Below, piece after piece: positions 14,210 to 32,535 of a stretch of 32,535 nt of DNA. Made by a program: the position numbers and the translations under genes. Origin of the DNA: Marinitoga litoralis (GTDB lineage: Bacteria; Thermotogota; Thermotogae; Petrotogales; Petrotogaceae); assembly GCF_016908145.1 (NCBI RefSeq), contig NZ_JAFBDI010000026.1:1-32535 (forward strand), in the 5' to 3' direction. Positions within the stretch are counted from its first letter, which is position 1. The number at the start of each line of letters is the position of its first letter. Below the pieces are notes generated by a model. It was not told the origin of the DNA, did no database searches, and worked only from the letters and a program-made list of their open reading frames with translations.

Positions 14210-14347
14210 ATGAGGTAAATACAAAGTAATCTTGCTAAATATTTCAGGAATAAAATAAAAAAGCCCGTTTCTAAAATAATATATATGCAGATGAAATAGA
14301 AAAAAAATATTTTATTATGAATATTTATGAAAGGTATAATAGAAAAT

Positions 14348-15513: not shown

Positions 15514-15535
15514 ATCCCCTTAGGGGGATTTTTTA
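15514..15535 (+). terminator. Terminator after the phospholipase D gene
   Basis: A stem ATCCCC / GGGGAT (loop TTAG) followed by TTTTTTATTTA lies about 50 bp after the stop codon. It separates the PLD gene from the downstream operon. Confidence 0.8.
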
Positions 15536-15576: not shown

Positions 15577-15604
15577 TTGATTATAAATATTTTTATGATA
15601 TAAT
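15577..15604 (+). promoter_or_regulatory. Promoter of the five-gene defence-like operon
   Basis: TTGATT (15577-15582) and TATAAT (15599-15604) are 16 bp apart, with TGA before the -10 (TGATATAAT). It lies 62 bp upstream of the first ATG and is the only convincing promoter before the 16.6-kb gene cluster. Confidence 0.7.
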
Positions 15605-15665
15605 TTAAATATATATGTTAAATTTTTGTGTAAAAGATTAAAAGTAAATATCAGGGGGAATAAAA

Positions 15666-17396
15666 ATGAATAAATCAACTGTAGTTTTTAATCAAAAAAC
15701 TTATCAACTTCATAACTTAGTAATTGATATTGATAGTGGAATTATAGCATTGCCAGATATACAAAGACCATTTGTTTGGGATTCTAGTAAAGTTAGGGAT
15801 CTTGTAGATTCATTATATAAAGGATTGCCAGTGGGAAATTTAATACTTTGGGAGGTTTCTGATATTGATAATTTTCATTCTATTGGAATAGATAAAAAAA
15901 GATCTCCAAAATATTTAGTTATAGATGGGCAACAAAGGCTTACTTCCCTCTATTCAATTTTAATGAATAAACCTGTGAAAAATAAAAATTTTAAAGATAT
16001 AAAAATAAAAATTGCATTTAATCCATTAGAAGAAAAATTTGAGGTAACCAATGCAGCTTTAGAAAAAGACCCTGAGTGGATAGGAGATATTAGTGAGTTG
16101 TTTTCTACTAGTTCCTATGATTTTATTGAAGAATACAAGAATAGATTAAAGAAAAAAAGGGAAGATATAGTAAATAAAGAATTTTCATTAATCGCTTCAA
16201 AGATACAAAGATTAGAAAATATTAAAAATTATACATTTTCTGTTTTAGAACTATCTTCTGAATTGGATCCTGAAGAAGTTGCAGAAATATTCGTTAGAAT
16301 AAATAGTAAAGGTAAAACTTTAAATCAATCTGATTTTATATTAACTTTAATGTCAGTGTATTGGGATGAAGGTAGAAAAGAAATAGAAGAATTTTGTAAA
16401 AAAGCTCATTATTTTTCCAATGAAAACACATCTTTTAATTTAATTAATCTAAAACCAAGTCCAGAACATTTAGTTAGAAGTATTGTTGGATATTCATTCT
16501 TTAGAGGAAGATTAAAATATGCTTATTTAATACTAAAAGGAAGAGATTTTGAAAATAGAATTTTTTCAGAAGAATTAAAAAATAAAAATCTAGAAATTTT
16601 TAAAAATGGGCATAAAAAAGTTCTAGATTTAGTAAATTGGCACGATTATATTAAAATAATATATGATGCTGGATTTGTAAATGATAATATGATTAGCTCT
16701 AAAATAGCATTTTTTATTACATATGTATTATATTTAATTGGTAAAGAAAGAATAAACTTTAGAAATCTAGAAAGAATAATTAGAAAATGGTTAGTTTTTT
16801 CATTATTAACTCAAAGATATACAGGTTCTCCAGAAAGTATTATAGAAAAAGATTTATTAAGCATAAAGAATAATGATTTTTTAGAAACATTAGATAGTAT
16901 TATGAAAAATGAATTAACAGAGAGTTTTTGGAAAATTACATTACCTAATGAAAAACTTGTAACTTCAAATACTTCAAATATATTACCAATATATGATGCG
17001 GCATTAATTTATGAGGACAAATTTATACCTTTTTCAAAAAGTAAAATACGTGAAAGAAAAAGTGTTTTAGTAAATGAAAAGAAAAAAACTATTGAAAGAC
17101 ATCATATATTTCCAAAAAACTATTTACATAAATTAGGAATAAAAGATGTTAAAGATGTAAATCAAATTGCTAATTTAATGTTTTTAGATTATAAAAATAA
17201 TATTGATATTAGTGATAAACCACCATCTGAATATTGGAATTTACTTACAAAAGAACTTTCTGACGATGAAATAAACAAAATATATATTGATTACGATTTA
17301 CCAAAAGATTTTTGGGATATGGATTATTTCAAATTTTTAAAAGAAAGAAGATATTTGATGGCAAAAAGAATAAGAAATTATTTTGAAAGTTTGTAA
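15666..17396 (+). CDS. DUF262 NTPase-like and HNH nuclease protein (GmrSD/SspE-like)
   Basis: The 576-aa protein has an N-terminal DUF262 domain: PDIQRPFVW at 30-38, and the ParB-fold motif IDGQQRLTSL from residue 86, whose DGQQR is the expected nucleotide-binding signature. A long helical middle follows, then a C-terminal HNH/DUF1524-type nuclease site ERHHIFPKNYL with His479-His480 and a following Asn near 499. Proteins of this layout include the type IV restriction enzymes GmrSD/BrxU, which cut modified DNA, and SspE of phosphorothioate defence. It is the first gene of the operon, with an AGGGGGAA ribosome site, 26 bp before the SNF2 helicase gene. Nuclease activity and target modification are inferred. 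Confidence 0.85.
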   Translation: MNKSTVVFNQKTYQLHNLVIDIDSGIIALPDIQRPFVWDSSKVRDLVDSLYKGLPVGNLILWEVSDIDNFHSIGIDKKRSPKYLVIDGQQRLTSLYSILMNKPVKNKNFKDIKIKIAFNPLEEKFEVTNAALEKDPEWIGDISELFSTSSYDFIEEYKNRLKKKREDIVNKEFSLIASKIQRLENIKNYTFSVLELSSELDPEEVAEIFVRINSKGKTLNQSDFILTLMSVYWDEGRKEIEEFCKKAHYFSNENTSFNLINLKPSPEHLVRSIVGYSFFRGRLKYAYLILKGRDFENRIFSEELKNKNLEIFKNGHKKVLDLVNWHDYIKIIYDAGFVNDNMISSKIAFFITYVLYLIGKERINFRNLERIIRKWLVFSLLTQRYTGSPESIIEKDLLSIKNNDFLETLDSIMKNELTESFWKITLPNEKLVTSNTSNILPIYDAALIYEDKFIPFSKSKIRERKSVLVNEKKKTIERHHIFPKNYLHKLGIKDVKDVNQIANLMFLDYKNNIDISDKPPSEYWNLLTKELSDDEINKIYIDYDLPKDFWDMDYFKFLKERRYLMAKRIRNYFESL

Positions 17397-17422
17397 TAGA
17401 TAAACTATATGGGGGGATATAT

Positions 17423-20400
17423 GTGGGAAAATTAGAAATTCCTGAAGTAGGAAAATTATTAAATGTTAGAAATAGAATATATCAAATAAATGAAATTGAA
17501 AAATACGACAATGTAAAAGGACCAGAATATTTTTTATCTTTGGAAGATATTGAAACTTCTAAATCTCTTCAAATAATATTAAGATCTGAAAAAGAAATTG
17601 AAATATCTCCAACATTTATTAAATTTAATGATTTTTTTTCAGAAATAAAAAATATAGATTCACCAGAAGTCTTTGATGCATTTATTAAAGCTTTAAAATG
17701 GTCAGTAAATTCAATTTTCTATTCTGATGCAATAAAATCTCCATTTTATTCAAATATTAAATTAAATTACTTCCAACTTGATCCTTTAATTAGGGCTTTA
17801 ACCATGCCAAAAATAAGTTTATTAATTGCAGATGATGTGGGTTTAGGAAAAACAATTGAAGCTGGTTTAATTATACAAGAATTGACTCTAAAAAATAAAA
17901 TAAAAAGGACATTAATTGTTTGCCCTGCAGCTTTGCAAGAACAGTGGCAGAGAGAAATGAAAGAAAAGTTTTCGATGGATTTTAAAATTATGAATTTAAA
18001 AGAAATAACAAAAATCTTCAAAGAATATGGAGTAAATGTTAATCCTTGGACTACTTATCCAAGATTAATAACTTCAATGGATTTTATTAAACAAGAAAAA
18101 TATTTAAATATGTTTAGAGCTACTACTTCTGGTGAGAAAAATATTAAATGGGATTTTTTAGTAGTAGATGAAGCACATAACATAATGCCAAAGCCAACAA
18201 ATGAATATTATCTTGATTCTGATAGAACAAAGGCTATTAGAGAGTTATCTAAAATATTCCCACATAAAGTTTTTTTGACAGCAACACCTCATAACGGGAA
18301 TACAAGATCATTTATAGCGTTATTAGAAATGCTTGACCCTAAATATTTTAATAGAGGCCAAAGTAAATTAGATAATATTTCTAAAAAAAGATTATATGAA
18401 ATAATGGTAAGAAGACTAAAAAATGAAATAAATGAATGGAATTTTATAGAAGATAGTAAATTTCCTGAAAGATTTATACATGAGTTTGAATTAAATTCAG
18501 AAGAAGATGAAATGAAATTATTTAATTATTTAAATGCTTATATACATAGAATGAATGATTTTCAAAAAACACTGAGTTCTAAAGAAAAAATTAATTTGGA
18601 TTTTACTTTAATGGTATTAAAAAAGCGTTTACTATCTTCTTATTATGCATTTTATAATTCTTTAGAAAAATATATAAATAAAAATTATGAAAATGTTATT
18701 GATGAAAAGTTTATTGATTTTACTATTAATAAATTAGAAAATGAAAATTATGATAATGATTTTGATAAAGATGAAGATGAAAAATTATTATTATCTGGGA
18801 TAATTGAAAATTATACAAATGATGAAATAAATAAAAAATTAATATATGATATGTATGAACTATCCTCAAAATTAAAAAATGAAGATGAACAAAAAATAAA
18901 AAAAATATATACTTTTATTGAAAATAAATTATTAGAAAATGGTTCATTTAATAATGAGAGATTAATTATATTTACAGAATATAAGGATACATTAGACTAC
19001 ATTGTGGAAAAACTAAAAAAAAGATATGGAGAAAATAGAGTTTTATCTTTATATGGTGGAATGAATTATAACGAGAGGGAAATTGTTAAGAAAAAATTTG
19101 AATCAGATCCATATAAAGAAGAGGCTAGAATTTTAGTAGCTACTGATGCGGCGAGTGAAGGTATAAATTTGCAATATTATTGTCATTCTCTTATTCATTA
19201 CGATATTCCATGGAATCCTATAAGGTTAGAGCAAAGAAATGGTAGAATTCACAGAGTTGGTCAAGATAAAGATGTACATATATATCACTTTATATATAAC
19301 AATAACGAAGATTATATGATATTAAAAAATGTAATAAAAAAAATAGATACTATAAAAGAAGATATAGATTCTTTGAACTCGCTAATTTCTGAAGAAACTC
19401 ATATGGCAATAAAAGAAAAATTACTATTAAAAGAAGACGAAATTTCTTTTGATTTAAAAATAAAATCAACTTTAGTTAAGCAAAAAATATTAATGAAAAA
19501 TGAAATTTTGCATAAATTTGATGAAATGAAAAAGAAGGTCCAATATTCCTTAAATGAAACTAAATACAAATATGAAATTACTCCTAGTAATAAAAAACTG
19601 GTACTATCTTCAGCTTTAAAAATATTAACAGGAAAAAATCAACTTGAAAAATATCCTGATGAAAAGAATATATATTATATTAAAGAACTTCCAAAAAACT
19701 GGGATAATTTAAAATCGTATATTAAAGATGAAAAAGGTGTATCAAAAAAAATATCTTTTGATAGTAAAGAATTAAAGAGTTCAAAAGAACATATTCATTT
19801 ATCTCATCCTTTAATGAAAAGGAGTATTAATTTTTTTAAATCTCAAATTTGGAATTTTAATAATAAAAAGATAAATAAGTTTACTATAAAAACTTCTGAA
19901 TTATTAGAAGATCCTTTAGTAAGAATATATTTAAAAACGTCAGTAAATGACAATAAGTTAGATAAAATTACTGAAGATATAGATATAATTAATGGTTATT
20001 TAATAAATAATACTTTTATAGAAGCAATAGAAGGTGAAAAAATTGTAGCAAAAAATATTGATAAAGAAAATATATTATTTGAATTATCAAAAAAAATCCA
20101 AATGCTTCTTAGAAAAAATGAAAACACTATAAACACAATAATAGAAAAAAGAAAAGAAAAATACATAGAAAAAGTAATTGAGTTATGGAATGAAAAAAAA
20201 GAAAAAGAAATAAAGAATTTAGAAAAGATATTAATAAATCAACTGAATGAAATAGATATATTAATAAATGAACTAAATAAAATGATAAATAAAAGAAAAA
20301 AATCAAATAAAAATCTAATATCATTATTTGATAACGAAATTACATTAAATGAGGAAATTAAAACTATAAAGGATGATATTGCTTATTTACAAAGAAAAAA

Positions 20401-20536
20401 AGAACTTTTGAAAGAAGAAATAAAAGAAAATATAAAAGAGTTAAAAAATAGAGTAATAAATAAGGAAATACATATGCTTCCTATTGCAGTAGAGGTTATA
20501 ATACCTGAAAGCTTTTTATCTGGAGGGATAATATGA
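17423..20536 (+). CDS. SNF2-family helicase, RapA/DrmD-like
   Basis: The 1037-aa superfamily 2 DNA translocase has motif I DDVGLGKTIEAG (from residue 137), motif II VVDEAH (DEAH 249-252), motif III FLTATPHNG (284-292), motif V ATDAASEGINLQ (573-584) and motif VI QRNGRIHRVGQ (604-614). Its length and wording match the DISARM protein DrmD and also DpdE of the Dpd system. The last about 170 residues are Lys/Glu-rich and predicted coiled coil, ending in a short hydrophobic tail. The start is GTG: the overlapping ATG two bases upstream is out of frame and hits a stop. GGGGGG lies 7 bp upstream. It overlaps the methyltransferase gene by 4 bp (ATGA), so the two are co-translated. DrmD identity is likely but unproven. 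Confidence 0.88.
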   Translation: MGKLEIPEVGKLLNVRNRIYQINEIEKYDNVKGPEYFLSLEDIETSKSLQIILRSEKEIEISPTFIKFNDFFSEIKNIDSPEVFDAFIKALKWSVNSIFYSDAIKSPFYSNIKLNYFQLDPLIRALTMPKISLLIADDVGLGKTIEAGLIIQELTLKNKIKRTLIVCPAALQEQWQREMKEKFSMDFKIMNLKEITKIFKEYGVNVNPWTTYPRLITSMDFIKQEKYLNMFRATTSGEKNIKWDFLVVDEAHNIMPKPTNEYYLDSDRTKAIRELSKIFPHKVFLTATPHNGNTRSFIALLEMLDPKYFNRGQSKLDNISKKRLYEIMVRRLKNEINEWNFIEDSKFPERFIHEFELNSEEDEMKLFNYLNAYIHRMNDFQKTLSSKEKINLDFTLMVLKKRLLSSYYAFYNSLEKYINKNYENVIDEKFIDFTINKLENENYDNDFDKDEDEKLLLSGIIENYTNDEINKKLIYDMYELSSKLKNEDEQKIKKIYTFIENKLLENGSFNNERLIIFTEYKDTLDYIVEKLKKRYGENRVLSLYGGMNYNEREIVKKKFESDPYKEEARILVATDAASEGINLQYYCHSLIHYDIPWNPIRLEQRNGRIHRVGQDKDVHIYHFIYNNNEDYMILKNVIKKIDTIKEDIDSLNSLISEETHMAIKEKLLLKEDEISFDLKIKSTLVKQKILMKNEILHKFDEMKKKVQYSLNETKYKYEITPSNKKLVLSSALKILTGKNQLEKYPDEKNIYYIKELPKNWDNLKSYIKDEKGVSKKISFDSKELKSSKEHIHLSHPLMKRSINFFKSQIWNFNNKKINKFTIKTSELLEDPLVRIYLKTSVNDNKLDKITEDIDIINGYLINNTFIEAIEGEKIVAKNIDKENILFELSKKIQMLLRKNENTINTIIEKRKEKYIEKVIELWNEKKEKEIKNLEKILINQLNEIDILINELNKMINKRKKSNKNLISLFDNEITLNEEIKTIKDDIAYLQRKKELLKEEIKENIKELKNRVINKEIHMLPIAVEVIIPESFLSGGII

Positions 20537-23500
20537 ATTTAAATGCAAGAATGTCAGGATTAGTGTTTTCAGAAAAAGTTTTAGATAAAATAAAAAGAAA
20601 TTATGATATTGAAAATTATAAGTTTAATAAATATAATCTTCTATTAAAAAAATTAGAATCAACAAATAAAGAATCTTCTGATATAAAAAAATTTATAATA
20701 TCATTCTTTTCTGAAATTTTAGGATATGAGAAAGATTCATTAATTACAAATATACCGGAAACTGAGAAAGTATATTTTGAGGATGCCCTTCAATATGAAA
20801 AACCACATATAGTATATAAATTTAATAATAAATCAGATAAAAAATTTTATTTTTATATTATACCTTCAAATAAAAAAATTGATGAAAAAGATGATACAAG
20901 CGGTAGATTAAAGATATCTTATTATGGAAAATTTGAAAGAGTATTAAGAGAAAAGAATGTAAAATATGGTTTTATTACAAATGGAGAAATTATTAGATTT
21001 GTATATGCTGAATCAGGACTTATTACATCATATATAGAATGGGATTTATATGATTTTAAAGAATATGAGAATCTAAATTTGTTCTATAATCTTTTTAGTA
21101 TAAATAGATTAAGAGATAAAGAATCATTATTCGAATTAATAAAAAGATCACAGGAAGAACAAAGCGAAATTACAGAAGAGTTATCAAGACAAGTTTTGAA
21201 TTCAATTAATATATTAGTAGAAAAAATAAATGAAGTAGAAGATAAAATTGAGTTGGATACATTTACAATATATGATTTTTTTGTAAAAACAGTTATGAGA
21301 ATGATATTTTTGCTATATGCAGAAGAAAATGGGGTTTTCCCACATGGTGATCCTATATATGATGAGAATTATGGTATTATATATCTTTCAAATAAATTAT
21401 TTGAAAGAGAACGATATGATATTGAAAATTTGAAAGAATCATTTGATGCATGGCCAAGAATATTAGCTTTGTTTAATTTAGTATATTATGGCTCTAAACA
21501 TCCCAAACTTGGAATTGTTGCGCATGGTGGAGATTTATTTGAACCAAAGGTAACTGAATTTTTAAGTAAAATACCAATTGATAATTATTCATTAACTCAA
21601 ATTTTTAAAAATCTATTATATTTAAATAGTCATAGAGTAACATATAGAGTTTTTTCAGTAGAACAAATAGGATATTTATATGAAGGTCTATTGAATTATA
21701 ATATTAAGACTAAAAATGGGAAATATTATTTGAATATTTCAAATGATAGAAAATCATCTGGAAGTTATTATACTCCTCCACAATTAGTAAGATATGTTGT
21801 AGAAAAAACTTTTGATAATTTAGTAATTAATAAAAGTTCTGAAGAAATATTAAAATTAAAAATAGTTGATCCTACTATGGGAAGCGGTGCATTTTTAGTC
21901 CATAGTGTAAGATACCTTGCAGAACATTTAGCAAAAGCATGGCAAAATGAAAATAAATATAATCATTTAAATTATGAAGAAAAAATTAAAGAGGCTAAAA
22001 GACATATTGTAGAGTTTTGTATATATGGAGTAGATATTAATCCTATGGCTGTTGAATTGGCAAAGGTTAGTCTTTGGTTAGAAACTTTATCAAGTGATAA
22101 ATCATTTTCTTTTTTGGATCATCATTTAAAGGTAGGGAATTCATTACTAGGTGTATGGAATGATGACAATATATATGAGGTACCTAAAGAAGTTTTTAAA
22201 TTAAAGAATGATTTATATTCAAAAGAATATAAAGATATAATAAAAAATATTAAAAAGGAAAATGATAAAACAAATCATTTCTCAGGCTCTCTATTTAATG
22301 CGATAAATTTATCTTCAATTTCTTATGATATTGAAACTATTTCAAAAAAAGCTTTACAAATTAATGATTATGAATTTTTAGAACAAGAATATAAAAAAAT
22401 AGCTTTGAATAGTGAAATAGAAAAGGAAAAAATAAAAAGAGATTTATGGTTGTCTAATTGGTTTGCTAATGAAATAGATAATGTTTATCCTATTAATTCT
22501 GAAAAAATAATGGATTTATATTCAAAAATAGATAAAAATGATTTAGAAGACCCATTTATTATTTGGAGTAGAAAAATGTCTGAAGAATTAAAATTTTTCC
22601 ATTGGGAATTAGAATTTCCTGAAGTATTTAAAGAAAAAGGTTTTGATGCAGTAGTTGGTAATCCACCTTGGGAAGTTTTGAAATTAAAAGAATTAGAATT
22701 TTTTAAAGATAAAGATGAAAGTATTGCATCTATACATAAAGCTAATAAAAGAAAAAAGGAAATAGAAAAATTAAAAGAGACTAATTTTGAATTATACAAT
22801 CGATATATTAGAGAAAAACAAGTATTTGAAAAAACGGGGAATTATATTAGAACAAATAAAAGATTTAAACTAACTTCTAAAGGAGAAATAAATCTATATC
22901 AATTATTTGCTGAGTTATTTTTAAATTTAACCAAAGAAAATTTTGGTATTGTTGTTCCAACGGGTTTATTTACAGATAATAATAATGTTAATTACTTTAA
23001 TTATTTGGTTGATAATAAACAAATATATGAAATAAATGATTTTGAAAATAAAAATAAAATTTTTAAGAATGTTGATGGAAGAATCCGTTTTTCGTTATTT
23101 ATATCTAAAAAAACACATACAATTAATATAAGAATACTTTTAACCAGAATTAGCGAATTATATGAAAAAGAATATATTAATATTTCAATAGAAGATTTAA
23201 AACTTTTTAATCCTAATACAAAAACATTACCAATGTTAAAAAATAATAATGAATATAAGATAATTAAAAAAATATATGAAAGATCAGAAGTAATAAAAAA
23301 TGAATATAAAGGATCAAGTTTTATTGATAATATATTTAATATATATCACATGTCAAATGATTCATATAAATTTGTTAGAAAAAATGAATTAATTGAAAAA
23401 GGATATAAAAAAGAATGGTACATGTATGTAAAAGATGATGAAATTTATTTGCCTCTTTTAGAAGGGAAAAGTTTCTTTATATTAAACTCTAGATATAGTG

Positions 23501-24228
23501 AAATTTTAGAAGATGGAAATGGAGTTAATGTTACTATAGAAAAATTAAATGATCCATACTTTTTTCCAGATACAAGATATTATGTAAAAAAAGATATTTT
23601 TGAAGAAACATTAAAAAATAAGAAATTTAATATAAATAAAAATTACTTTTTTGTCTTTAGAAATATTACCAATTCAACTAATGAAAGAACCTTTATCATA
23701 TCACTTTTACCAAAATTACCAGCAGGTAACTCTATAAACATTTTTGATACAAAATTTTTAATTGAATTTTTAACGATGTCATCACATATAATTGATTTTT
23801 CTATAAGAAAAAAAATACAAGGAGTGAATTTGAATCACTTCATTTTTTACCAATTCCTTATTCCTAAACCAAATTCTTTTATAAAATATTCAGGTATAAA
23901 TGGTGATGAAACATTAGAAATATCTCTTAGAAAAATATTTATTAATTTATTAAATTATTCGTATGATATGGAAGGAATAGTTAGAGATTTAGGTGGAGAA
24001 ATTCAACCAAGAGAATGGGACGAGAAAGAAAGAATTGATAATTTTGCAAAATTAGATGCTATTATGGCTATATATTATGATATGAGTAAAGATGAATTAA
24101 AATATATTTTTAGTGATTTTGAAGTTGAAAGGAAAAATCAAAAATCACAATATGGGCAGTATCTATCAGAAATATTAGCTTTAAAATATTATGATTTATT
24201 TAAATCGCAAATTAAATTATTGGGGTGA
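20533..24228 (+). CDS. Large class I adenine-specific DNA methyltransferase (PglX/DrmMI-like)
   Basis: The 1231-aa protein is a gamma-type N6-adenine methyltransferase. Motif X region GSYYTPPQLVRYVV (410-423), motif I VDPTMGSGAFLVH (445-457), GVDINPMAVELAKVSLWLE (499-517) and catalytic motif IV NPPW (710-713, preceded by FDAVVG) are intact. The long C-terminal part (about 930-1220) looks like a target recognition domain of the type in PglX, LlaGI and DrmMI. The N-terminal 180 residues recall the front of type IIG/ISP enzymes (YGFITNGEIIRF), but I see no complete PD-(D/E)xK site, so it probably does not cut. Likely role: methylating host sites to protect from the system. It overlaps the SNF2 gene by 4 bp and ends 4 bp before the next gene. 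Confidence 0.9.
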   Translation: MNLNARMSGLVFSEKVLDKIKRNYDIENYKFNKYNLLLKKLESTNKESSDIKKFIISFFSEILGYEKDSLITNIPETEKVYFEDALQYEKPHIVYKFNNKSDKKFYFYIIPSNKKIDEKDDTSGRLKISYYGKFERVLREKNVKYGFITNGEIIRFVYAESGLITSYIEWDLYDFKEYENLNLFYNLFSINRLRDKESLFELIKRSQEEQSEITEELSRQVLNSINILVEKINEVEDKIELDTFTIYDFFVKTVMRMIFLLYAEENGVFPHGDPIYDENYGIIYLSNKLFERERYDIENLKESFDAWPRILALFNLVYYGSKHPKLGIVAHGGDLFEPKVTEFLSKIPIDNYSLTQIFKNLLYLNSHRVTYRVFSVEQIGYLYEGLLNYNIKTKNGKYYLNISNDRKSSGSYYTPPQLVRYVVEKTFDNLVINKSSEEILKLKIVDPTMGSGAFLVHSVRYLAEHLAKAWQNENKYNHLNYEEKIKEAKRHIVEFCIYGVDINPMAVELAKVSLWLETLSSDKSFSFLDHHLKVGNSLLGVWNDDNIYEVPKEVFKLKNDLYSKEYKDIIKNIKKENDKTNHFSGSLFNAINLSSISYDIETISKKALQINDYEFLEQEYKKIALNSEIEKEKIKRDLWLSNWFANEIDNVYPINSEKIMDLYSKIDKNDLEDPFIIWSRKMSEELKFFHWELEFPEVFKEKGFDAVVGNPPWEVLKLKELEFFKDKDESIASIHKANKRKKEIEKLKETNFELYNRYIREKQVFEKTGNYIRTNKRFKLTSKGEINLYQLFAELFLNLTKENFGIVVPTGLFTDNNNVNYFNYLVDNKQIYEINDFENKNKIFKNVDGRIRFSLFISKKTHTINIRILLTRISELYEKEYINISIEDLKLFNPNTKTLPMLKNNNEYKIIKKIYERSEVIKNEYKGSSFIDNIFNIYHMSNDSYKFVRKNELIEKGYKKEWYMYVKDDEIYLPLLEGKSFFILNSRYSEILEDGNGVNVTIEKLNDPYFFPDTRYYVKKDIFEETLKNKKFNINKNYFFVFRNITNSTNERTFIISLLPKLPAGNSINIFDTKFLIEFLTMSSHIIDFSIRKKIQGVNLNHFIFYQFLIPKPNSFIKYSGINGDETLEISLRKIFINLLNYSYDMEGIVRDLGGEIQPREWDEKERIDNFAKLDAIMAIYYDMSKDELKYIFSDFEVERKNQKSQYGQYLSEILALKYYDLFKSQIKLLG

Positions 24229-24232
24229 AATT

Positions 24233-27200
24233 ATGGCTTTAAATCCTATTTTGTTTTCAAAAGATGTTTTTTCTGCTTATACTGAATTTTTAATTAATTT
24301 TATTAATTTTCAAGACCCTGATTTAGAAAAAGACTTAAAAGAATTGATTAAATTTGACTTAATTAAGGGGTCAAGACTTATAAAAGGACCATATATTTCT
24401 CTTAATAAACCATATAAAATAGGTAAAAATTTAGAAGAATTAAGTAAGAGTTATAAAATACATAGTTTTTTAAAAAATAAGATAAACTTTAATTTGTACT
24501 CCCATCAAGAAGAAGCTTTTAAAAAAATTACCGAAGAAAATAATGTTGTTATTTCAACAGGAACAGGTTCAGGGAAAACAGAATCTTTTTTATTTCCTAT
24601 TCTAAATAAATTATTATTAAATGAAAGTAAAGGATTAAAAGTTTTGATTATTTACCCTATGAATGCATTAGTAAATGATCAGATGATTAGAATTAAAAAA
24701 TTATTTTCAGGAAGTGGTATAACATTTGGTAAATATACAGGCGAAACACCACAAAAAAATATTAATATTAAAAGATTTGAAAGACCAACAATTATTAAAG
24801 GTAATGATGAAGAAGCAATTGAAAAAGGTGAAATAATTCCATTTGAAGAAAAAGATTCTAGAGAAGAAATACAAAATGATCCTCCAAATGTGTTAGTTAC
24901 TAATTATTCTCAATTAGAGTATTTATTATTGAGGGAAGATGATTTGAAAATATTTAAAGATATGGATCTAGAATATATAATTCTAGATGAAATACATACT
25001 TATGTTGGAGAACAAGGATCAGAAGTTGCTGCATTATTAAGGCGGATTAAAGCATTGGCGAAAAATCCAGAAAAAATAAAATTTATTGGAACGTCAGCAA
25101 CTATTGCCTCAGGAAATAAAGAAGAAAAAGAAAAGAAAATAGAAAATTTTGCAAAAAAATTGTTTGGTGTAGATAATATTTCGAGCATTTTTGAAGAATA
25201 TAGTGATATTAATACTAATGATGTTTTATATGAACCTAGTTTAGTCAAAAATTCTTTGTATATATTAAATGATATTATAGAAAATGAATTAAATAGTGAA
25301 AATTATTATTATTTAACAGGGAAAAATAATGTTATTTTTAAAGAAGATATTATAAATAATGCAGTATTTCGTTGGATTATTGATTTTTTAAAAGAACCAA
25401 TGTCTTTAGAAGAAGTTGTTAATGCTTTTAAAAAGAAGTTTAATAGAAATAATTCTGATAATGAAATCGCAGCTGAAATATATTCATATTTGCTAGCTGG
25501 AATAGAAATAAAAAATGATGATGATTACCCATTAATAAGACCTAAAATGCATTTTTTTGTTAAAGGAATAAATAATCTTAGAGCTTATTTTAAAAATGGA
25601 AAAAGATACGTTACATTAGATGAGGATAAAGGATATCATTTATATTCATGTAGGAATTGTGGGCAACATTATTATAAAGGATTTTTTGAAAAAGAGAAAT
25701 TAACTATTAAAGGTATTATCTCTCAAAGAGCTATTTCTGAGATTACATCGAATGAATATGAAGAAATTTTATTTACTGATAGTAATATATTCTTTTCTGA
25801 TGAGAGTGAAAAAAATTATGATTTAGCATATTTATGTGAAAAATGTGGAACTATACATTATGAACCTGCTGGAAAATGTGTAAATTGTGAAAGTAAAAAT
25901 ATAATAGAGATTTTTATTTTAAATGAAAATAAAAGATGTTTATCATGTAATAGTTCTCTTGAAAACAATAAACAAAAAAATCTAGTTAAATCATCTTCAT
26001 TTGAACCAGTTGATTTGACTATTTTAACAGAAAATATTTTATCTTTGGCCGACAATCCAAAAATAATTATTTTTACAGATAATAGACAAGAAGCATCTTT
26101 TTTAAATGGATTTATGGAAGTAACATCTAAAAGATTTATATATAGGGATAGATTATATAAGTTTTTAAAAAATCATAATATTTTTTATAACTTAAATGAA
26201 TTAACGGAAAAGTTTTTCTATTATTTATTTGAAAATGGTGATTTAGAAAAAATTAATAGTAAAGATGTATATACTGAAAAATCTAAGGAATTAGATGAGT
26301 ATATTTACTTAGAATGGTTTATTTATGAAGAATTTTGTTCTCAAATTTCTCAAATAAAGAAAAATTCATTAGAAAAATTGGGTTTGTTGAATATTGATTA
26401 TGATTTATTTAATGAAGAAAATAAATGGTTTCTTTTGGAATGGAGTAATAAGTTAAATATCGACATAAATTCTTTGAAAGGTATTATTTACAAAATATTA
26501 GATTATTTCAGAAGAAGAAATACAGTTGATTTGCCAATATTAGAAAAAGTTGTAGGTAATCAAAGAAACAAATATAAAACAAAATTAAATCTTCCTGAAT
26601 ATATAAATATGAGTTCAATATCTAAAAATAGTGATTTGAATTCTTTAGCATTTATATCTCGAACAAATAGAACGTATCCTCAAGTCTTATTGCAAAAGGA
26701 AATTGGTTCTATTAATGACGAATTTTTAGAAGAATTATTTCATTTTTTAAAAAAGAATATATTTGTTAAAAAAGAAATAGGAAGACAAAAATATATATTA
26801 TTAGATCCTAATAAAATTATTATTGAATTAAACAAAGAAAAAAAATATCTTGAATGTAAAACTTGCGGAGAGAAATCTTTATTGAACAGAAAGACAAAAA
26901 ATAATTCATGTACAAATTATAGATGTAAGTCATCTTTTAAAGAAAATGAAATATTATATAATTATGATGTTAAGAGGTATTTGAATGAAAGTTCTAGATT
27001 TGAATTAAAACCAATGGAACATACAGGACAAATAAAAAAATCCGATAGAGAAGCTGCTGAAAGAAAATTTAAAAATGGAGATATTAATGTTATAGTGGCT
27101 ACTTCAACTTTAGAACTAGGTATTGATATTGGTGATTTGGATTTTGTGTTAATGAGAAATGTTCCTCCTTCACCAGCAAATTATGATCAAAGGGTAGGAA

Positions 27201-29209
27201 GGGCTGGAAGGAGATTGAAAATTGGCGTAGCTATTACTTATTGTGGTTATTCAAACCATGATCAAAGATTTTTTGAATCTCCCCAAGAAATGATTAAAGG
27301 GGAAATAAAAGAACCTATATTCTCAACAAAAAATGAACCTTTATTTATAAGGCATATTCATTCTTTTATTTTTACTTCTTTATTCTTAAATTCAACAGAA
27401 AAAGATTTTGAATTATTAAAAAAGGCTATTCCGAATAAAATTTCAAATTATTTATTTGATGAGTTAGTTCCTGATTATAAAAGAATTGAGTATATAAGTG
27501 ATGATCTAGGAAAATATTACAGGAAATTAATTAGTGAAAAAAAAGATATTTTGGTTAATGAAATAAAAAGATATTTTAGATTTTGGTCAGATACTATTGA
27601 ATACTTTACTAAAATTTATAATATTAGCGAAGATGACTTAGCTAAGAAATATATTGAAGGTTCTGCAAAAGAATTAGAAAAAATTTTAAAATATACAAAA
27701 GATCTATATTTATATTGGCTTAAAAAAAGAGATGAAGTGCATAAAAATATGGCTTATTATAATCCTTATAATCAAATTATAAATGATTTTATTCAAGGAA
27801 ATGATGAGTATTATACTTTGAATTATTTAAAAAATCATGGTTTTTTACCAGGATATAATTTAGTAAAACCTGGAGTTACAATTTTTCATATTCCAGATGT
27901 AGAGTTTTTCAGACCTTATTCAATAGCTTTGAGAGAGGCATCACCTTTTTCTACGGTTTATGTGAATGGAAAGCAATATAAAATAAAAGATTATATAATT
28001 TATTCTACAAAAAGTAAAGACTTTATCAAAACATTTCATATTCATGATCCTAATGGTTCAAAAGATATTTTTGCAATGCATATTACTGATGTAGAATTAG
28101 AAAAAGGAGAAAAAATTAGAAGTAGCGATACTGGAAGAAAAGTTAATTCATATGTCATGGCAACTGATTTTAATAAAAACAGTGGTCATTTGGGAGGAAA
28201 AAAATACATAACTAGTGGCGGAATAAATATAGAATTTTATAAAAATGCGACATTTTATTTAATAAATACAGGTGTAAAAGATAGAGGCAATATAGAACAT
28301 TTTTATGTTTGCCCTGAATGCGGTTATACTTCTAATAAGAATACAGAAGAAAAAAATAAAAAAAATTTTTTAAAACATATTAAAGAAAAACATAATAATA
28401 AAAACTCTATCCTAAGAGAGTATACAAAAAATATAGAAGAAGGTGGAATTTCAATTTATTCAAAACATAAATCAGACATAATATTAATTGGAGGATTTGA
28501 GAAAGATTCTGAAGCTGCAAGTGTTGGTGAAGCCATTAAATTAGGAGCATCTTTAATAACGGATATTTCAGAAAATGATTTATCATTTGATTTGGAATAC
28601 AAAAATGGAGTATATAATGCAATAATATATGAAGATATTCCGGGTGGAAGCGGATATGTTGAATTTATTTTCGAAAAGATAGAAGATATCATTGAAAGTA
28701 GTATTAATTATTTAAAAAAATGCAAGTGTGAAAAAGCTTGTTATAAATGTTTATTAAGTTATTGGAATCAGCATTTACATGATAAATTAGACAGAAATAT
28801 ATCTATTGAAAAATTAGAAAAAATGAAAATTATTAAAAATATAATTACAATACCACCTGCAGTAGAAGTTGAGGAGGAAGATAATGATATGGAAGAATCA
28901 CTTTTAGAAAAAGAATTTTATAAATATTTAAAAGATAATGGATTTCCTTTACCAGAAAAACAATATGAAATAACATCACCTGTAAATACGCGTATTGATT
29001 TTGCATATTCAGATAAAAAAATAGCTATATATCTTGATGGCAAACCTTATCATAATGACCCTAAAAAAATTAGACAAGACCAAATAATTACTTTGAAGTT
29101 AGAAGGAGATGGATGGAAAGTTTTAAGGATTTCTTCAGATGATTGGAATGATGAAGATTTAAAAGTTTTAAAAATTAATAAATTAAAACGATTTTTAGAT
29201 GAAAGATAA
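24233..29209 (+). CDS. Giant DUF1998 helicase with zinc clusters and Vsr-like nuclease end
   Basis: The 1658-aa superfamily 2 helicase is of the MrfA/DUF1998 group, as in DISARM, Druantia DruE and DpdJ. In order: Q-like motif LYSHQEEAF (about 88); Walker A GTGSGKT (110-116); DEIH 252-255; GTSATI (286-291). A long insertion has cysteine pairs at 473/476, 535/538, 549/552, 569/572 and 875/878/893/898. The second RecA lobe has TLELGID (959-965) and QRVGRAGRR (986-994). A C2H2-like finger follows (C1360, C1363, H1382, H1387), then the DUF1998 cysteine cluster C1497, C1499, C1503, C1506. The C-terminal 130 residues match a Vsr/DUF559 nuclease fold: D1589, IYLDGKPYH (to H1607), D1616 and GWKVLR. 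The start is placed at 24233, with GGGGTGA just upstream; the frame is open 14 codons earlier. Confidence 0.88.
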   Translation: MALNPILFSKDVFSAYTEFLINFINFQDPDLEKDLKELIKFDLIKGSRLIKGPYISLNKPYKIGKNLEELSKSYKIHSFLKNKINFNLYSHQEEAFKKITEENNVVISTGTGSGKTESFLFPILNKLLLNESKGLKVLIIYPMNALVNDQMIRIKKLFSGSGITFGKYTGETPQKNINIKRFERPTIIKGNDEEAIEKGEIIPFEEKDSREEIQNDPPNVLVTNYSQLEYLLLREDDLKIFKDMDLEYIILDEIHTYVGEQGSEVAALLRRIKALAKNPEKIKFIGTSATIASGNKEEKEKKIENFAKKLFGVDNISSIFEEYSDINTNDVLYEPSLVKNSLYILNDIIENELNSENYYYLTGKNNVIFKEDIINNAVFRWIIDFLKEPMSLEEVVNAFKKKFNRNNSDNEIAAEIYSYLLAGIEIKNDDDYPLIRPKMHFFVKGINNLRAYFKNGKRYVTLDEDKGYHLYSCRNCGQHYYKGFFEKEKLTIKGIISQRAISEITSNEYEEILFTDSNIFFSDESEKNYDLAYLCEKCGTIHYEPAGKCVNCESKNIIEIFILNENKRCLSCNSSLENNKQKNLVKSSSFEPVDLTILTENILSLADNPKIIIFTDNRQEASFLNGFMEVTSKRFIYRDRLYKFLKNHNIFYNLNELTEKFFYYLFENGDLEKINSKDVYTEKSKELDEYIYLEWFIYEEFCSQISQIKKNSLEKLGLLNIDYDLFNEENKWFLLEWSNKLNIDINSLKGIIYKILDYFRRRNTVDLPILEKVVGNQRNKYKTKLNLPEYINMSSISKNSDLNSLAFISRTNRTYPQVLLQKEIGSINDEFLEELFHFLKKNIFVKKEIGRQKYILLDPNKIIIELNKEKKYLECKTCGEKSLLNRKTKNNSCTNYRCKSSFKENEILYNYDVKRYLNESSRFELKPMEHTGQIKKSDREAAERKFKNGDINVIVATSTLELGIDIGDLDFVLMRNVPPSPANYDQRVGRAGRRLKIGVAITYCGYSNHDQRFFESPQEMIKGEIKEPIFSTKNEPLFIRHIHSFIFTSLFLNSTEKDFELLKKAIPNKISNYLFDELVPDYKRIEYISDDLGKYYRKLISEKKDILVNEIKRYFRFWSDTIEYFTKIYNISEDDLAKKYIEGSAKELEKILKYTKDLYLYWLKKRDEVHKNMAYYNPYNQIINDFIQGNDEYYTLNYLKNHGFLPGYNLVKPGVTIFHIPDVEFFRPYSIALREASPFSTVYVNGKQYKIKDYIIYSTKSKDFIKTFHIHDPNGSKDIFAMHITDVELEKGEKIRSSDTGRKVNSYVMATDFNKNSGHLGGKKYITSGGINIEFYKNATFYLINTGVKDRGNIEHFYVCPECGYTSNKNTEEKNKKNFLKHIKEKHNNKNSILREYTKNIEEGGISIYSKHKSDIILIGGFEKDSEAASVGEAIKLGASLITDISENDLSFDLEYKNGVYNAIIYEDIPGGSGYVEFIFEKIEDIIESSINYLKKCKCEKACYKCLLSYWNQHLHDKLDRNISIEKLEKMKIIKNIITIPPAVEVEEEDNDMEESLLEKEFYKYLKDNGFPLPEKQYEITSPVNTRIDFAYSDKKIAIYLDGKPYHNDPKKIRQDQIITLKLEGDGWKVLRISSDDWNDEDLKVLKINKLKRFLDER

Positions 29210-29229
29210 TTTTGTAGTGGGGGATGGGT

Positions 29230-32200
29230 ATGATAGATATAAAATTAAGGAAATTAAATTACTTGAAAAACAGAATAAATGAAATTTTTGATATGGGTTT
29301 TAATATTTTAATTTTTGAAGAATATAATGAGTACTTAAAAAATGACTTTATTTTTTTACCAGATAACTTAAGTGATATTGATAAAGAAATAGAAATTTTA
29401 AAAACGAAAAGTTTTGAAGACTTTAATTATTTGTCAAAATATACTAAAAATAAAATAATAATTCATCCAAAGTTATTTTTTTATATTTATGAAAATTATA
29501 AATTTTTGTTTTCAAATAAAAAAATAGCATATTTAGTTAATGAAAAAAATAAATATGATTATTTATATAACAATTTTGAAATAAAAATATTCAATTATTT
29601 TAGAGAAGTAGAAAAAATAGTCATTTCTGATGAAGAAGCTTTAAGAAATTATATAAAAAATAAAAAAATTTTACTTTTAGAAAAAAATGAAACTTTAATA
29701 AAATTTTTAAGTGTTGAAAATATTAATTTTGTTTTTGATGAAAAAAAATTATTAGAAGAAGAGAAAGTAGTAATTTTAATAAAAAATGATTCAAAATATT
29801 CAGAAGCATTGAAGTTAATTAATTTTTTCCCAGAATTATCTTTAGAAATTGTAAGTTTTGTTGGTGATTTTTTAGACCCTAAATTAAAAAATATTGATTT
29901 AAACGTTTTATTGAAAGAATATTTTAATTTTTCAAATTTCAAAGTTTATGATATATACACTAGTGGTGATTTAAAACAGACTAAAATATCACAAGAGTAT
30001 ATAATTAAAAGTATTTTAAATAAGATTTATAGTAAAAATAAAAATGACTTTATTTTTGTAGCTTCGACTGGAAGTGGGAAATCGTTGATTTATCAATTTA
30101 TATCAAAAATGTTACACGATGATGGATTAATTACTATTGTTATATCTCCATTGAAAACATTAATGGAAGATCAAGTAAACAAATTAAGGAAAAATGAAGT
30201 TTTTAAAAATATGGTTGCTTTAATAAATTCTGACACATCACAATTTGAAAGAGAAAATATATATAAAAAAATAAATGATGGAATAATTTCTTTAATATAT
30301 TTGTCTCCTGAATATTTAGCAAAAAATAACATAAAAAATTTATTTAAAAAAAGAAAAATTGGATTGGTAGTAATAGATGAAGCTCATGTTGTTAGCACTT
30401 GGGGAAACACTTTTAGAGTTGATTATGGATATTTGGGAGAATATTTAGATATATTGCAAAAAGAAAATGCACCATTTGTAAAACTTGCTTTAACAGCCAC
30501 TATGATAAGTGATGGTTTTTTAAATACAAAAAAAGAAATAATAGATTATCTTAAATTAAAAGATCCACAAATATTTTACACCGTATTAAGAAAAGAAAAT
30601 ATTAATTTTAATGTAAAAAAATTAAATTCAGAGACAAATACTCAAAATATAGAAAAACTATGTAAAGAAGAGGTTCTCAAAAAAATTATTAATAATATTG
30701 AAAAAGAGGTAAAAACAGTTATATATTGTTCTTATAAAAGTGAAGTATCAGAACTTTTTTTTGATCAATCATTAGAAAAATATAGAAACAAAATAGCTTA
30801 TTTAACAGGAGATTCAGAGTTGAAAGAGAGAGACAAAATACATAAAAAATTCAAAAGAGGAGAAATTAAAATAATTATATCTACAAAAGTATTTGGAATG
30901 GGAGTTGATATTTCTGATATTAGAGAAGTAATACATTATAATCTACCTAATTCATTAACAGAATATGTGCAAGAAATTGGTAGAGCCGGGAGGGATGGGA
31001 AACCATCATTTGCAACTGTATTTTATAATAATAAATCTTTGTTAAATTCATATAGATTAGAAAATATGAGTATTCCTGCAAAATGGCAATTAAAACATGT
31101 ATATAATTATATATATAAAAAATCTTTAAAAGCAAAAGGAAAATCAAAAAAAATTCAGATATCTATAGAAGATTTAGCTCATATATTTAAAACTAATAAT
31201 TTTGACGAAGCTACTAAAAAAGTAAGAATATCTTTTTTTATTATTGAAAAAGAATTAGAGAGAATTTTTCCAAATAAATTATTAAAAAAAACATATGAAG
31301 GAAATTTAAAAATATATTTTAGAAGTTTAGATGATAATGTTAAAGAAAAAATTCCATTAGCATATGAAGAATATAAAAATACTCTTCGTTTTAGTGAAAA
31401 TGGGGACGAAATTAAAGGAAATAAAAGTATATATAAACTTAATCTTGCTGAATTTTTAGAAAGAAAGTCAGAACTTTCTTATGGTGAGTTTATATATAAA
31501 TTCTATAATAATAAGAGCAAAGAAATTATTGGAATAGCAATGGATCCAGTTATTATTTATAAAATAAATTTAAATAAGGAATTTTCTGAAGTTTTAGATA
31601 GATTTAAAAATGTTATGAATATTATAAAAGATTTTATATATGGATTCGATAGTTCTTTTGCAACATTTGTATTAAAAGGGAATTTGATAAAAAGAGATAT
31701 GTTTGATGAATATTTGAATAAATATATTGAAAAAAAGAGCAATTATTTAGAATGGTTAAATATAAAAGACAAACGTGAATTATATGGAAAATTAAATACT
31801 ATTTTTAATAGTTTTTTTATAAAAAGCAATTTTAAAAATCCTTCATATGCATTAATATATAATAAAAAATTCGGATATAATGTAATAAAGAATGGAAATA
31901 AAAAATTGGATAATCTAATTAATTTATTTAGAAAAGCTTTTTATGAAAAATTAGAATGTACAACAATTACACCCTATGCAGAATTTAAAAGTAGCCCTAT
32001 TAGTACATTAGGTGGTATTTTAGAAATATTGAATTTAGCAGATATTGAGATAAAAGGTGGCGAGTACGGATTAATTGAATATAAAATAAATGGTTATTTG
32101 CCTGAAAATATCAAATTTGATATACCTAAACTATTAAGAGAAAGAATAAAGAAAGAAAATGCTTATTCTAAATATTTTTTTAATAATATTGATATCATTA

Positions 32201-32253
32201 AAGATAAATGGGAATTCCTTGAGAAGTACTTTCATGGATTATTGGATTTATAA
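29230..32253 (+). CDS. RecQ-family helicase with novel N-terminal domain
   Basis: The 1007-aa protein has a RecQ-type motor in the middle: Walker A ASTGSGKSLIYQF (from 278), DEAH 383-386 followed by VVSTWGNTFRVDYGYL (RecQ usually has a tryptophan-containing aromatic loop here), LTATM, TKVFGMGVDIS, and motif VI QEIGRAGRDGKPS (581-593). The first about 250 residues match no family I know. The C-terminal 400 residues lack the four-cysteine RecQ zinc domain and an obvious HRDC domain. DpdF of the Dpd system is also a RecQ-like helicase. It is the last gene of the operon, 20 bp after the DUF1998 helicase. I take the second of two ATGs (29230) because GTGGGGG then has 6-bp spacing; 29224 is the alternative. 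Confidence 0.85.
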   Translation: MIDIKLRKLNYLKNRINEIFDMGFNILIFEEYNEYLKNDFIFLPDNLSDIDKEIEILKTKSFEDFNYLSKYTKNKIIIHPKLFFYIYENYKFLFSNKKIAYLVNEKNKYDYLYNNFEIKIFNYFREVEKIVISDEEALRNYIKNKKILLLEKNETLIKFLSVENINFVFDEKKLLEEEKVVILIKNDSKYSEALKLINFFPELSLEIVSFVGDFLDPKLKNIDLNVLLKEYFNFSNFKVYDIYTSGDLKQTKISQEYIIKSILNKIYSKNKNDFIFVASTGSGKSLIYQFISKMLHDDGLITIVISPLKTLMEDQVNKLRKNEVFKNMVALINSDTSQFERENIYKKINDGIISLIYLSPEYLAKNNIKNLFKKRKIGLVVIDEAHVVSTWGNTFRVDYGYLGEYLDILQKENAPFVKLALTATMISDGFLNTKKEIIDYLKLKDPQIFYTVLRKENINFNVKKLNSETNTQNIEKLCKEEVLKKIINNIEKEVKTVIYCSYKSEVSELFFDQSLEKYRNKIAYLTGDSELKERDKIHKKFKRGEIKIIISTKVFGMGVDISDIREVIHYNLPNSLTEYVQEIGRAGRDGKPSFATVFYNNKSLLNSYRLENMSIPAKWQLKHVYNYIYKKSLKAKGKSKKIQISIEDLAHIFKTNNFDEATKKVRISFFIIEKELERIFPNKLLKKTYEGNLKIYFRSLDDNVKEKIPLAYEEYKNTLRFSENGDEIKGNKSIYKLNLAEFLERKSELSYGEFIYKFYNNKSKEIIGIAMDPVIIYKINLNKEFSEVLDRFKNVMNIIKDFIYGFDSSFATFVLKGNLIKRDMFDEYLNKYIEKKSNYLEWLNIKDKRELYGKLNTIFNSFFIKSNFKNPSYALIYNKKFGYNVIKNGNKKLDNLINLFRKAFYEKLECTTITPYAEFKSSPISTLGGILEILNLADIEIKGGEYGLIEYKINGYLPENIKFDIPKLLRERIKKENAYSKYFFNNIDIIKDKWEFLEKYFHGLLDL

Positions 32254-32387
32254 AATAGTATCAAATTAATACTTTTTAAAAATATAATTTTTATACAATA
32301 TAGTTTTTATATTATATTAATGATATATATTAATATATATAAATCCTTTTAAAACCCATAAAATAAGTTTTTTAATATATAAATATC

Positions 32388-32423
32388 AATTAAACAACAC
32401 CTTGTGGTGTTGTTTAATTTTTA
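32388..32423 (+). terminator. Strong terminator of the five-gene operon
   Basis: A perfect 14-bp inverted repeat AATTAAACAACACC / GGTGTTGTTTAATT with loop TTGT is followed by TTTATAT. It lies about 135 bp after the RecQ-like gene. The AT-rich stretch between them (32254-32387) shows nothing else I can name. Confidence 0.85.
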
Positions 32424-32436: not shown

Positions 32437-32454
32437 TATAATGGAGGTGAAATG

Positions 32455-32535
32455 ATGAAAAGATTTTGTACTTCTGGACCTGTTGATAAGAACACTTGTT
32501 ATTATGTTGAAAGACCAGAATTAATGAAAGAAGCA
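32455..32535 (+). CDS. Start of a probable AAA-like ATPase gene (partial)
   Basis: Only the first 27 codons are in the window. The N-terminus MKRFCTSGPVDKNTCYYVER resembles the opening of AAA-like ATPases in which a 'FxTxGPVxPxxHYxV' strand precedes the nucleotide-binding domain. GGAGGTGA is well spaced for this ATG; another ATG one codon earlier (32452) is possible. The gene has its own promoter and lies beyond the operon terminator, so its relation to the defence-like cluster is open. Confidence 0.6.
   Translation, partial: MKRFCTSGPVDKNTCYYVERPELMKEA

What the first reader, a model, noticed from the sequence alone, without database searches (positions are those of the whole stretch)
15577..32423. 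Candidate composite anti-phage system: DUF262-HNH, SNF2, methyltransferase, DUF1998 helicase, RecQ
Seen: five large co-directional genes (gaps 26, -4, 4, 20 bp), one promoter and one strong terminator, about 16.6 kb. Known: DISARM class 1 combines a SNF2 helicase (DrmD), an adenine methyltransferase (DrmMI) and DUF1998/helicase proteins (DrmA/DrmB); Dpd systems use SNF2 (DpdE), RecQ (DpdF) and DUF1998-type (DpdJ) helicases; GmrSD/SspE use DUF262-HNH. Inference: this operon merges these themes, with one methyltransferase, three different motors and two nuclease-like domains, but lacks DrmC, PglZ, HsdS and deazaguanine enzymes. I do not know a named system with exactly this composition, though DISARM-related variants have been explored and one may cover it.
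Basis: partly seen in the sequence, partly recalled or inferred. Interest (0 to 1): 0.88.

Follow-up and report, generated by a model that had tools for sequence, protein, structure and literature searches.

The report
ARMADA defence operon with two extras
A heat-loving bacterium (phylum Thermotogota) carries a recently described kind of anti-virus operon, ARMADA, flanked in one apparent transcription unit by two extra defence genes; the core is a known kind of system, and only the particular combination is unusual.

Summary
The five large co-directional genes are real. The middle three, SNF2 helicase, adenine methyltransferase, and DUF1998 (YprA-like) helicase with a C-terminal Vsr-type nuclease, are not an unnamed composite. 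In a tree of 89 YprA homologues, the window protein falls among those with SNF2 and methyltransferase neighbours, apart from Druantia-like ones, in a well-supported subclade with four other Thermotogota. The core order recurs in Thermosipho (55-56% identity), Oscillospiraceae, Sulfurospirillaceae, Thermococcus and others. The first gene (DUF262-HNH, GmrSD/BrxU-like) and last gene (RecQ-like, about 1,000 aa) are not part of this conserved set. Across 103 Thermotogota genomes neither co-occurs with the core more than chance predicts, and neither adjoined it in any of about 20 other core loci. Relatives of each sit in other defence loci: type III restriction, BREX, type III CRISPR, type I restriction. 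Best reading: a Type I-like ARMADA with two accessory genes, a type IV-like nuclease and a helicase where ARMADA Type II has a different fourth helicase. All catalytic motifs checked are present. The function of this five-gene set is untested and no second example was found.

The parts
15514..15529 (+). intrinsic terminator separating the upstream PLD gene from the operon
   Evidence: ATCCCCTTAGGGGGAT followed by TTTTTATTTA
15577..15604 (+). candidate sigma-70 promoter (TTGATT-16-TATAAT, extended -10)
   Evidence: a consensus match only, not above shuffled expectation, but it lies in the only long gap before the operon
15666..17396 (+). accessory gene 1: DUF262 (GmrS-like, IDGQQR) plus C-terminal HNH-type (HHIFP) predicted NTP-regulated endonuclease, GmrSD/BrxU-like
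   Evidence: PF03235 123.6 bits, PF07510 19.7 bits (below cut-off 23); motifs; PDB 7p9k (DUF262 protein) 1.3e-8
17423..20536 (+). ArmA-like SNF2/BrxHII/DrmD-type helicase
   Evidence: PADLOC DrmD 806 bits; NCBIfam DISARM_DrmD 782 bits (cut-off 610); 55% to the Thermosipho homologue; 28% over 544 aa to E. coli ArmA
20533..24228 (+). ArmB-like (PglX/DrmMI/Eco57I-type) adenine-N6 DNA methyltransferase; motif I DPTMGSG, motif IV NPPW
   Evidence: 55-56% to the Thermosipho homologue
24233..29209 (+). ArmC-like YprA-family helicase: DEAD helicase core, zinc-binding CxxC motifs, MZB/DUF1998, C-terminal MTES_1575/Vsr-type nuclease (likely start ATG 24233; the longest ORF begins at 24191)
28529..28753 (+). 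DUF1998 (MZB) domain of the YprA-like helicase, the only one in the genome
28907..29206 (+). C-terminal Vsr/MTES_1575-type PD-(D/E)XK nuclease domain (E1573, D1603, DGKPYH 1616-1621)
   Evidence: PF18741 2.9e-9 (37.3 bits, just under the 38.2 cut-off); motifs
29230..32253 (+). accessory gene 2: RecQ-core SF2 helicase with about 250 aa N-terminal and 390 aa C-terminal family-specific regions (PADLOC C3a193); likely start ATG 29230
   Evidence: PDLC01089 431.8 bits over 208-1005; AlphaFold model with 15 sequences pLDDT 80.7, Foldseek to the RecQ core 1e-22
32388..32419 (.). bidirectional intrinsic terminator closing the operon

Best explanation
A chromosomal ARMADA (Type I-like) anti-phage operon whose core, SNF2 helicase (ArmA), adenine methyltransferase (ArmB) and YprA-like helicase with Vsr nuclease (ArmC), is apparently transcribed together with two separately acquired accessory genes. 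Inferred mechanism: ArmB marks or inspects DNA by adenine methylation. ArmA translocates on or remodels duplex DNA. ArmC loads on incoming or replicating DNA that has exposed single strands and lacks the mark, unwinds it, and its Vsr domain cuts it. The DUF262-HNH protein adds a second layer, as BrxU does inside a BREX locus: NTP-gated cleavage of phage DNA carrying base modifications. The RecQ-type helicase probably makes or extends single-stranded tails or processes broken phage DNA, occupying the place after armC where Type II ARMADA has a different helicase (ArmD, UvrD/GajB-like). Shown here: gene content, order, intact motifs, phylogenetic placement, conserved core, non-conserved flanking genes. 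Inferred: every biochemical step, and that the two accessory genes act with the core.
For: Family hits: DrmD, DrmMI, DruE-like, GmrSD_N and RecQ/C3a193. PMC12458937 defines ARMADA as a YprA-like helicase plus BrxHII/RapA-like helicase plus PglX-like methylase, with a C-terminal Vsr nuclease; the SNF2-MTase-YprA order occurs in Type II and in many archaeal and cyanobacterial Type I loci, and all four Type II genes are needed for defence. Tree: the window's YprA lies in the half of the tree that holds every locus with SNF2+MTase neighbours (0.984), with subclade support 1.0; E. coli Druantia III DruE lies in the other half and E. coli Type II ArmC outside the window's half. The core recurs across phyla. 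YprA and MTase genes co-occur in 6 Thermotogota genomes, expected 0.48, P 3.4e-8. Catalytic motifs are present in all five proteins. DUF262 relatives lie inside a type III restriction locus, a BREX locus and others; RecQ relatives lie beside type III CRISPR, PglX and type I restriction genes. BrxU inside BREX is the precedent for a complementary type IV layer. DruE, a YprA-family relative, loads on 3'-tailed DNA and cuts DNA.
Against: NCBIfam would name the SNF2 protein DrmD of DISARM. Tight gene spacing could mean that all five genes are one functional unit here, which sequence alone cannot exclude. No methylation, transcription or phage data exist for this operon.
Confidence: 0.82

Rival explanations
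1. A distinct five-gene ARMADA variant: the RecQ protein is a true fourth component replacing ArmD, the DUF262-HNH protein a true fifth, and all five are required together.
For: All five genes are co-directional between two terminators, with overlaps or gaps of 26 bp or less. In Type II ARMADA the gene after armC is also a helicase and is essential.
Against: None of about 20 other core loci has either gene next to the core. No full-length relative of the RecQ protein was found in 27 genomes whose YprA falls in the ARMADA half of the tree or beside core genes in 8 Clostridia loci. Co-occurrence in Thermotogota is at chance level. The closest homologue (Thermosipho, 55-56%) has no RecQ downstream.
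Confidence: 0.15
2. A DISARM class 1 system (DrmD, DrmMI, a fused DrmAB) with accessory genes.
For: The SNF2 protein passes the NCBIfam DISARM_DrmD cut-off; the MTase best matches DrmMI.
Against: DISARM has separate helicase and DUF1998 genes plus a PLD nuclease DrmC. Here they are fused, the best PADLOC matches are DruE rather than DrmA (392 vs 52 bits), the genome has no other DUF1998 protein, and the upstream PLD gene is a genus-conserved exported protein.
Confidence: 0.05
3. An inactive or decaying island: genes co-directional by accident, no longer giving protection.
For: Defence islands decay often; in one relative the nuclease core is partly missing (L080) and in another the RecQ homologue carries stops (G045).
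Against: All five window frames are intact and every catalytic motif is present.
Confidence: 0.05

Closest known systems
ARMADA (Type I, in its SNF2-MTase-YprA gene order; PMC12458937)
   Same: YprA-like helicase with C-terminal Vsr nuclease, BrxHII/DrmD-like SNF2 helicase and PglX-like methyltransferase; order as in many archaeal and cyanobacterial Type I loci
   Different: flanked in the same apparent operon by a DUF262-HNH gene and a RecQ-like gene; neither is mentioned for ARMADA in the preprint (DUF262, GmrSD and RecQ do not occur in its text)
ARMADA Type II (E. coli NCTC 12900, ATCC 8739)
   Same: same core order, followed by a helicase gene
   Different: fourth gene is a GajB/UvrD-type helicase with a RelE-like domain, not RecQ; core proteins only 20-30% identical; ArmC lies outside the window's half of the tree
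DISARM class 1
   Same: DrmD-type SNF2 helicase and DrmMI-type methyltransferase
   Different: DUF1998 fused to the helicase, C-terminal Vsr nuclease, no DrmC
Druantia III (DruE, DruH)
   Same: YprA-like helicase with zinc modules and C-terminal nuclease
   Different: no DruH; a SNF2+MTase pair instead; separate half of the tree
BrxU / GmrSD type IV restriction
   Same: DUF262 with DGQQR plus C-terminal HNH-type domain, sitting inside a methylation-based defence locus
   Different: HNH motif is HHIFP rather than DHIYP, and the C-terminal Pfam model is below its cut-off
RecQ-like 'C3a193' family (PADLOC, possible alternative Cas3)
   Same: full-length relationship over residues 208-1005; relatives sit next to type III CRISPR, PglX and type I restriction genes
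   Different: here it follows an ARMADA core

Membership tests
ARMADA | YprA-like helicase belonging to the ARMADA clade, not DISARM/Dpd or Druantia | tested here: met
   groups (0.984) with loci having SNF2+MTase neighbours; Druantia III DruE in the other half; DISARM/Dpd not included in the tree but DrmA and DpdJ scores are far lower than DruE
ARMADA | BrxHII/RapA-like (DrmD-like) SNF2 helicase gene in the operon | tested here: met
ARMADA | PglX-like adenine methyltransferase gene with NPPW motif | tested here: met
ARMADA | C-terminal Vsr-type nuclease fused to the YprA helicase | tested here: met
   MTES_1575 match (2.9e-9, just below the curated cut-off); D/DG..YH motif
ARMADA | BrxA-like helical insertion and beta-barrel/MarR-like zinc modules in the helicase | tested here: inconclusive
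   CxxC motifs in the expected region; the BrxA-like fold was not modelled
ARMADA Type II | fourth gene: GajB-like helicase with N-terminal RelE-like domain | tested here: not met
   the gene after armC is RecQ-type SF2
ARMADA Type I | YprA placed in the Type I subclade | tested here: inconclusive
   window subclade (1.0) is sister to archaeal and YprA-first loci, apart from E. coli Type II ArmC, but that branch is weakly placed and the published Type I reference was not available
DISARM class 1 | separate DrmA (helicase) and DrmB (DUF1998) genes | tested here: not met
   fused in one 1,672 aa protein; only DUF1998 protein in the genome
DISARM class 1 | DrmC PLD nuclease in the operon | tested here: not met
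   the upstream PLD gene has weak partial DrmC matches only (90 bits or less), a signal-like N-terminus, lies beyond a terminator and is conserved in congeners lacking the operon
Druantia | DruH or other Druantia partner genes beside DruE | tested here: not met
   none among the five genes
Dpd | 7-deazaguanine insertion genes | tested here: not met
   no such gene among the five operon genes or the ten flanking genes scanned; the rest of the genome was not searched
GmrSD/BrxU type IV restriction (gene 1) | DUF262 domain with DGQQR and DUF1524/HNH domain | tested here: met
   PF03235 123.6 bits; HNH part weak (19.7 vs 23 cut-off) but HHIFP and downstream Asn residues present
GmrSD/BrxU type IV restriction (gene 1) | cleavage of modified DNA | not testable with these tools
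   needs biochemistry
ARMADA | anti-phage activity | not testable with these tools
   needs plating assay

The most novel reading that the evidence does not exclude
The operon is a functional ARMADA variant in which a RecQ-type helicase has taken the place of Type II's ArmD and a type IV-like DUF262-HNH nuclease has been built in, giving one operon that attacks both unmodified and base-modified phage DNA.
Probability: 0.15. Interest if true: 0.6.

Novelty: new member of a known kind. Interest (0 to 1): 0.36.

Why it matters
It adds a Thermotogota branch to ARMADA with intact frames and motifs, showing that the SNF2-MTase-YprA/Vsr core is the conserved unit. It also suggests that DUF262-HNH nucleases and C3a193-type RecQ helicases are exchangeable plug-ins: each was found with several unrelated defence systems. 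That supports modular assembly of large defence operons and gives a testable pair of accessory functions. It also warns that automated naming (DrmD, DruE) would split this locus among three different systems.

Tried and rejected
The protein-only genome scan with the YprA helicase found nothing; the alignment scan then gave 80 loci. Plasmid searches gave only distant or RecQ-core matches. The viral-contig scan gave nine loci, none with the core. The first RecQ model with four sequences was poor (pLDDT 56.9) and was discarded; the second (pLDDT 80.7) matched only the RecQ helicase core, so the N- and C-terminal regions remain without a fold assignment. I considered the upstream PLD gene as DrmC and rejected it. 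No clean empty site was obtained: in congeners the sequence downstream of the PLD gene differs. Rfam gave no match and repeats nothing diagnostic. The first tree attempt timed out.

Full report
Observation. The five genes exist as described: long uninterrupted + strand frames, closely packed, between a terminator at 15514-15529 and one at 32388-32419. The window is a whole contig of a 2.29 Mb genome; the 103-genome phylum it belongs to is Thermotogota, since one member found again in the named collection is a Thermosipho MAG. The genus was not confirmed.

What the proteins are. Gene 1 is a DUF262 (GmrSD_N) protein with IDGQQR and a C-terminal HHIFP HNH-like motif. Gene 2 is an SNF2 helicase of the DrmD/BrxHII kind; it passes NCBIfam's DISARM_DrmD cut-off. 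Gene 3 is a DrmMI/PglX/Eco57I-type adenine methyltransferase with NPPW. PADLOC scores it as DruE (392 bits), far above DrmA (52 bits) or DpdJ (108 bits). Gene 5 is a RecQ-core helicase with about 250 extra N-terminal and 390 extra C-terminal residues. PADLOC places it in a family labelled C3a193, 'possible alternative Cas3'. A 15-sequence AlphaFold model (pLDDT 80.7) matches RecQ catalytic cores and nothing else of note.

Identification of the core. Bell et al. 2025 (PMC12458937, a bioRxiv preprint) define ARMADA as operons of a YprA-like helicase with a C-terminal Vsr nuclease, a BrxHII/RapA-like helicase and a PglX-like methylase, with Types I and II. Type I often has the YprA gene first, but many archaea and cyanobacteria have the SNF2-MTase pair first, as here. 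[quoted passage not shown] An E. coli Type II system blocked phages, and each of its four genes was required. The window's three middle genes fit this definition.

Conservation. In Thermotogota, relatives of the YprA and methyltransferase genes at E <= 1e-30 occur in seven genomes each, six of them shared (expected 0.48, P 3.4e-8). In G084 (Thermosipho) all three core genes are adjacent in the same order at 55-56% identity; G006 and G086 carry the core too, partly on split contigs. The alignment scan of 84,980 species returned 80 loci. The ordered core, or YprA followed by SNF2-MTase, recurs in Oscillospiraceae, Sulfurospirillaceae, Thermococcus, ANME archaea, Pseudomonas and others. In the tree, all loci with such neighbours fall in one half with the window (support 0.984) and Druantia-like loci in the other. 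The window sits in a subclade (1.0) with four other Thermotogota and an Oscillospiraceae MAG. E. coli ATCC 8739 supplied Type II ArmC and Druantia III DruE as anchors; ArmC lies outside the window's half but on a weakly supported branch (0.479).

The two outer genes. Neither is part of the conserved set. Full-length relatives of the RecQ protein occur in 7 of 103 Thermotogota genomes and DUF262 relatives in 16; each meets the core only in the window's genome, which is chance level (0.41 and 0.93 expected). None of about 20 other core loci has them next door, and the Thermosipho core is followed by other genes. That contig ends just upstream of the SNF2 gene, so absence of DUF262 there cannot be judged. 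A profile of the RecQ family found only RecQ-core matches in 27 genomes whose YprA falls in the ARMADA half of the tree. In 8 of 341 Clostridia that carry the full-length family, none of the neighbours is an ARMADA core gene; one locus is a type I restriction operon. In Thermotogota, relatives lie near type III CRISPR genes (G030, G025, G033), near a Cas3 gene (G020), and directly after a PglX gene (G045, frame broken). DUF262 relatives lie between the methyltransferase and restriction genes of a type III system (L088), near BREX PglZ and BrxL (L090), upstream of a different SNF2 plus type IIG-like pair at 66% identity (L085), and beside an SNF2/HmaC-like locus (L087). Both are therefore best seen as mobile accessory modules. 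A GmrSD homologue embedded in a methylation-based locus is known: BrxU lies between brxC and pglX in a BREX island and protects against modified phages while BREX covers unmodified ones, and GmrSD genes are enriched beside type I restriction genes.

Mechanism. The core most likely works as described for its relatives. DISARM's DrmAB discriminates by DNA structure and possibly methylation (PMC9142583). DruE loads on 3'-tailed DNA, oligomerises on single strands and cleaves (PMC13192584). Here ArmB would mark self DNA, ArmA translocate or remodel, and ArmC unwind and cut through its Vsr domain; these steps are inference. The DUF262-HNH protein would add modification-dependent cleavage and the RecQ protein 3'-to-5' unwinding that supplies or processes tails; the positional parallel with Type II ArmD is suggestive only.

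Alternatives. DISARM is rejected: helicase and DUF1998 are fused, there is no DrmC, and the upstream PLD gene is an exported host protein conserved at 76-79% in four congeners without the operon and insulated by a terminator. Druantia is rejected by neighbours and tree. No deazaguanine genes were seen among the genes scanned, and the genome has no PglZ. A five-gene obligate system remains possible but unsupported, because the combination is a single case.

Verdict.

Noticed in passing
L225, L226, L227, L228 (Clostridia): The RecQ family of gene 5 is often preceded, with overlapping or nearly touching ends, by a sigma-70-like gene that matches the C-terminal part of PADLOC's MzaA, a recurrent pair that may be a small defence unit of its own.
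   Followed up: partly
L187:9607-11997 (G045, same family): A 41% identical RecQ relative lies directly after a PglX-like methyltransferase but its reading frame carries nine stops.
   Followed up: partly
L080:1584-6638 (G005): This YprA homologue lacks about 36 residues of the Vsr nuclease core that the window protein has, so its nuclease may be inactive.
   Followed up: no
window 14327-15466: Exported protein with two PLD domains, 76-79% conserved in four congeners that lack the operon; a host gene, not DrmC.
   Followed up: yes
window 32454-32535: Start of a further gene after the terminator (MKRFCTSGPVDKNTCYYVERPELMKEA), cut by the contig end; resembles the start of AAA-ATPase-like proteins (from memory, not tested).
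   Followed up: no
L188:1669-25696 (E. coli ATCC 8739): ARMADA Type II, Druantia III and Zorya II array located and usable as a reference; PADLOC 2.0.0 labels its ARMADA genes DruE, type IIG and DrmD.
   Followed up: yes
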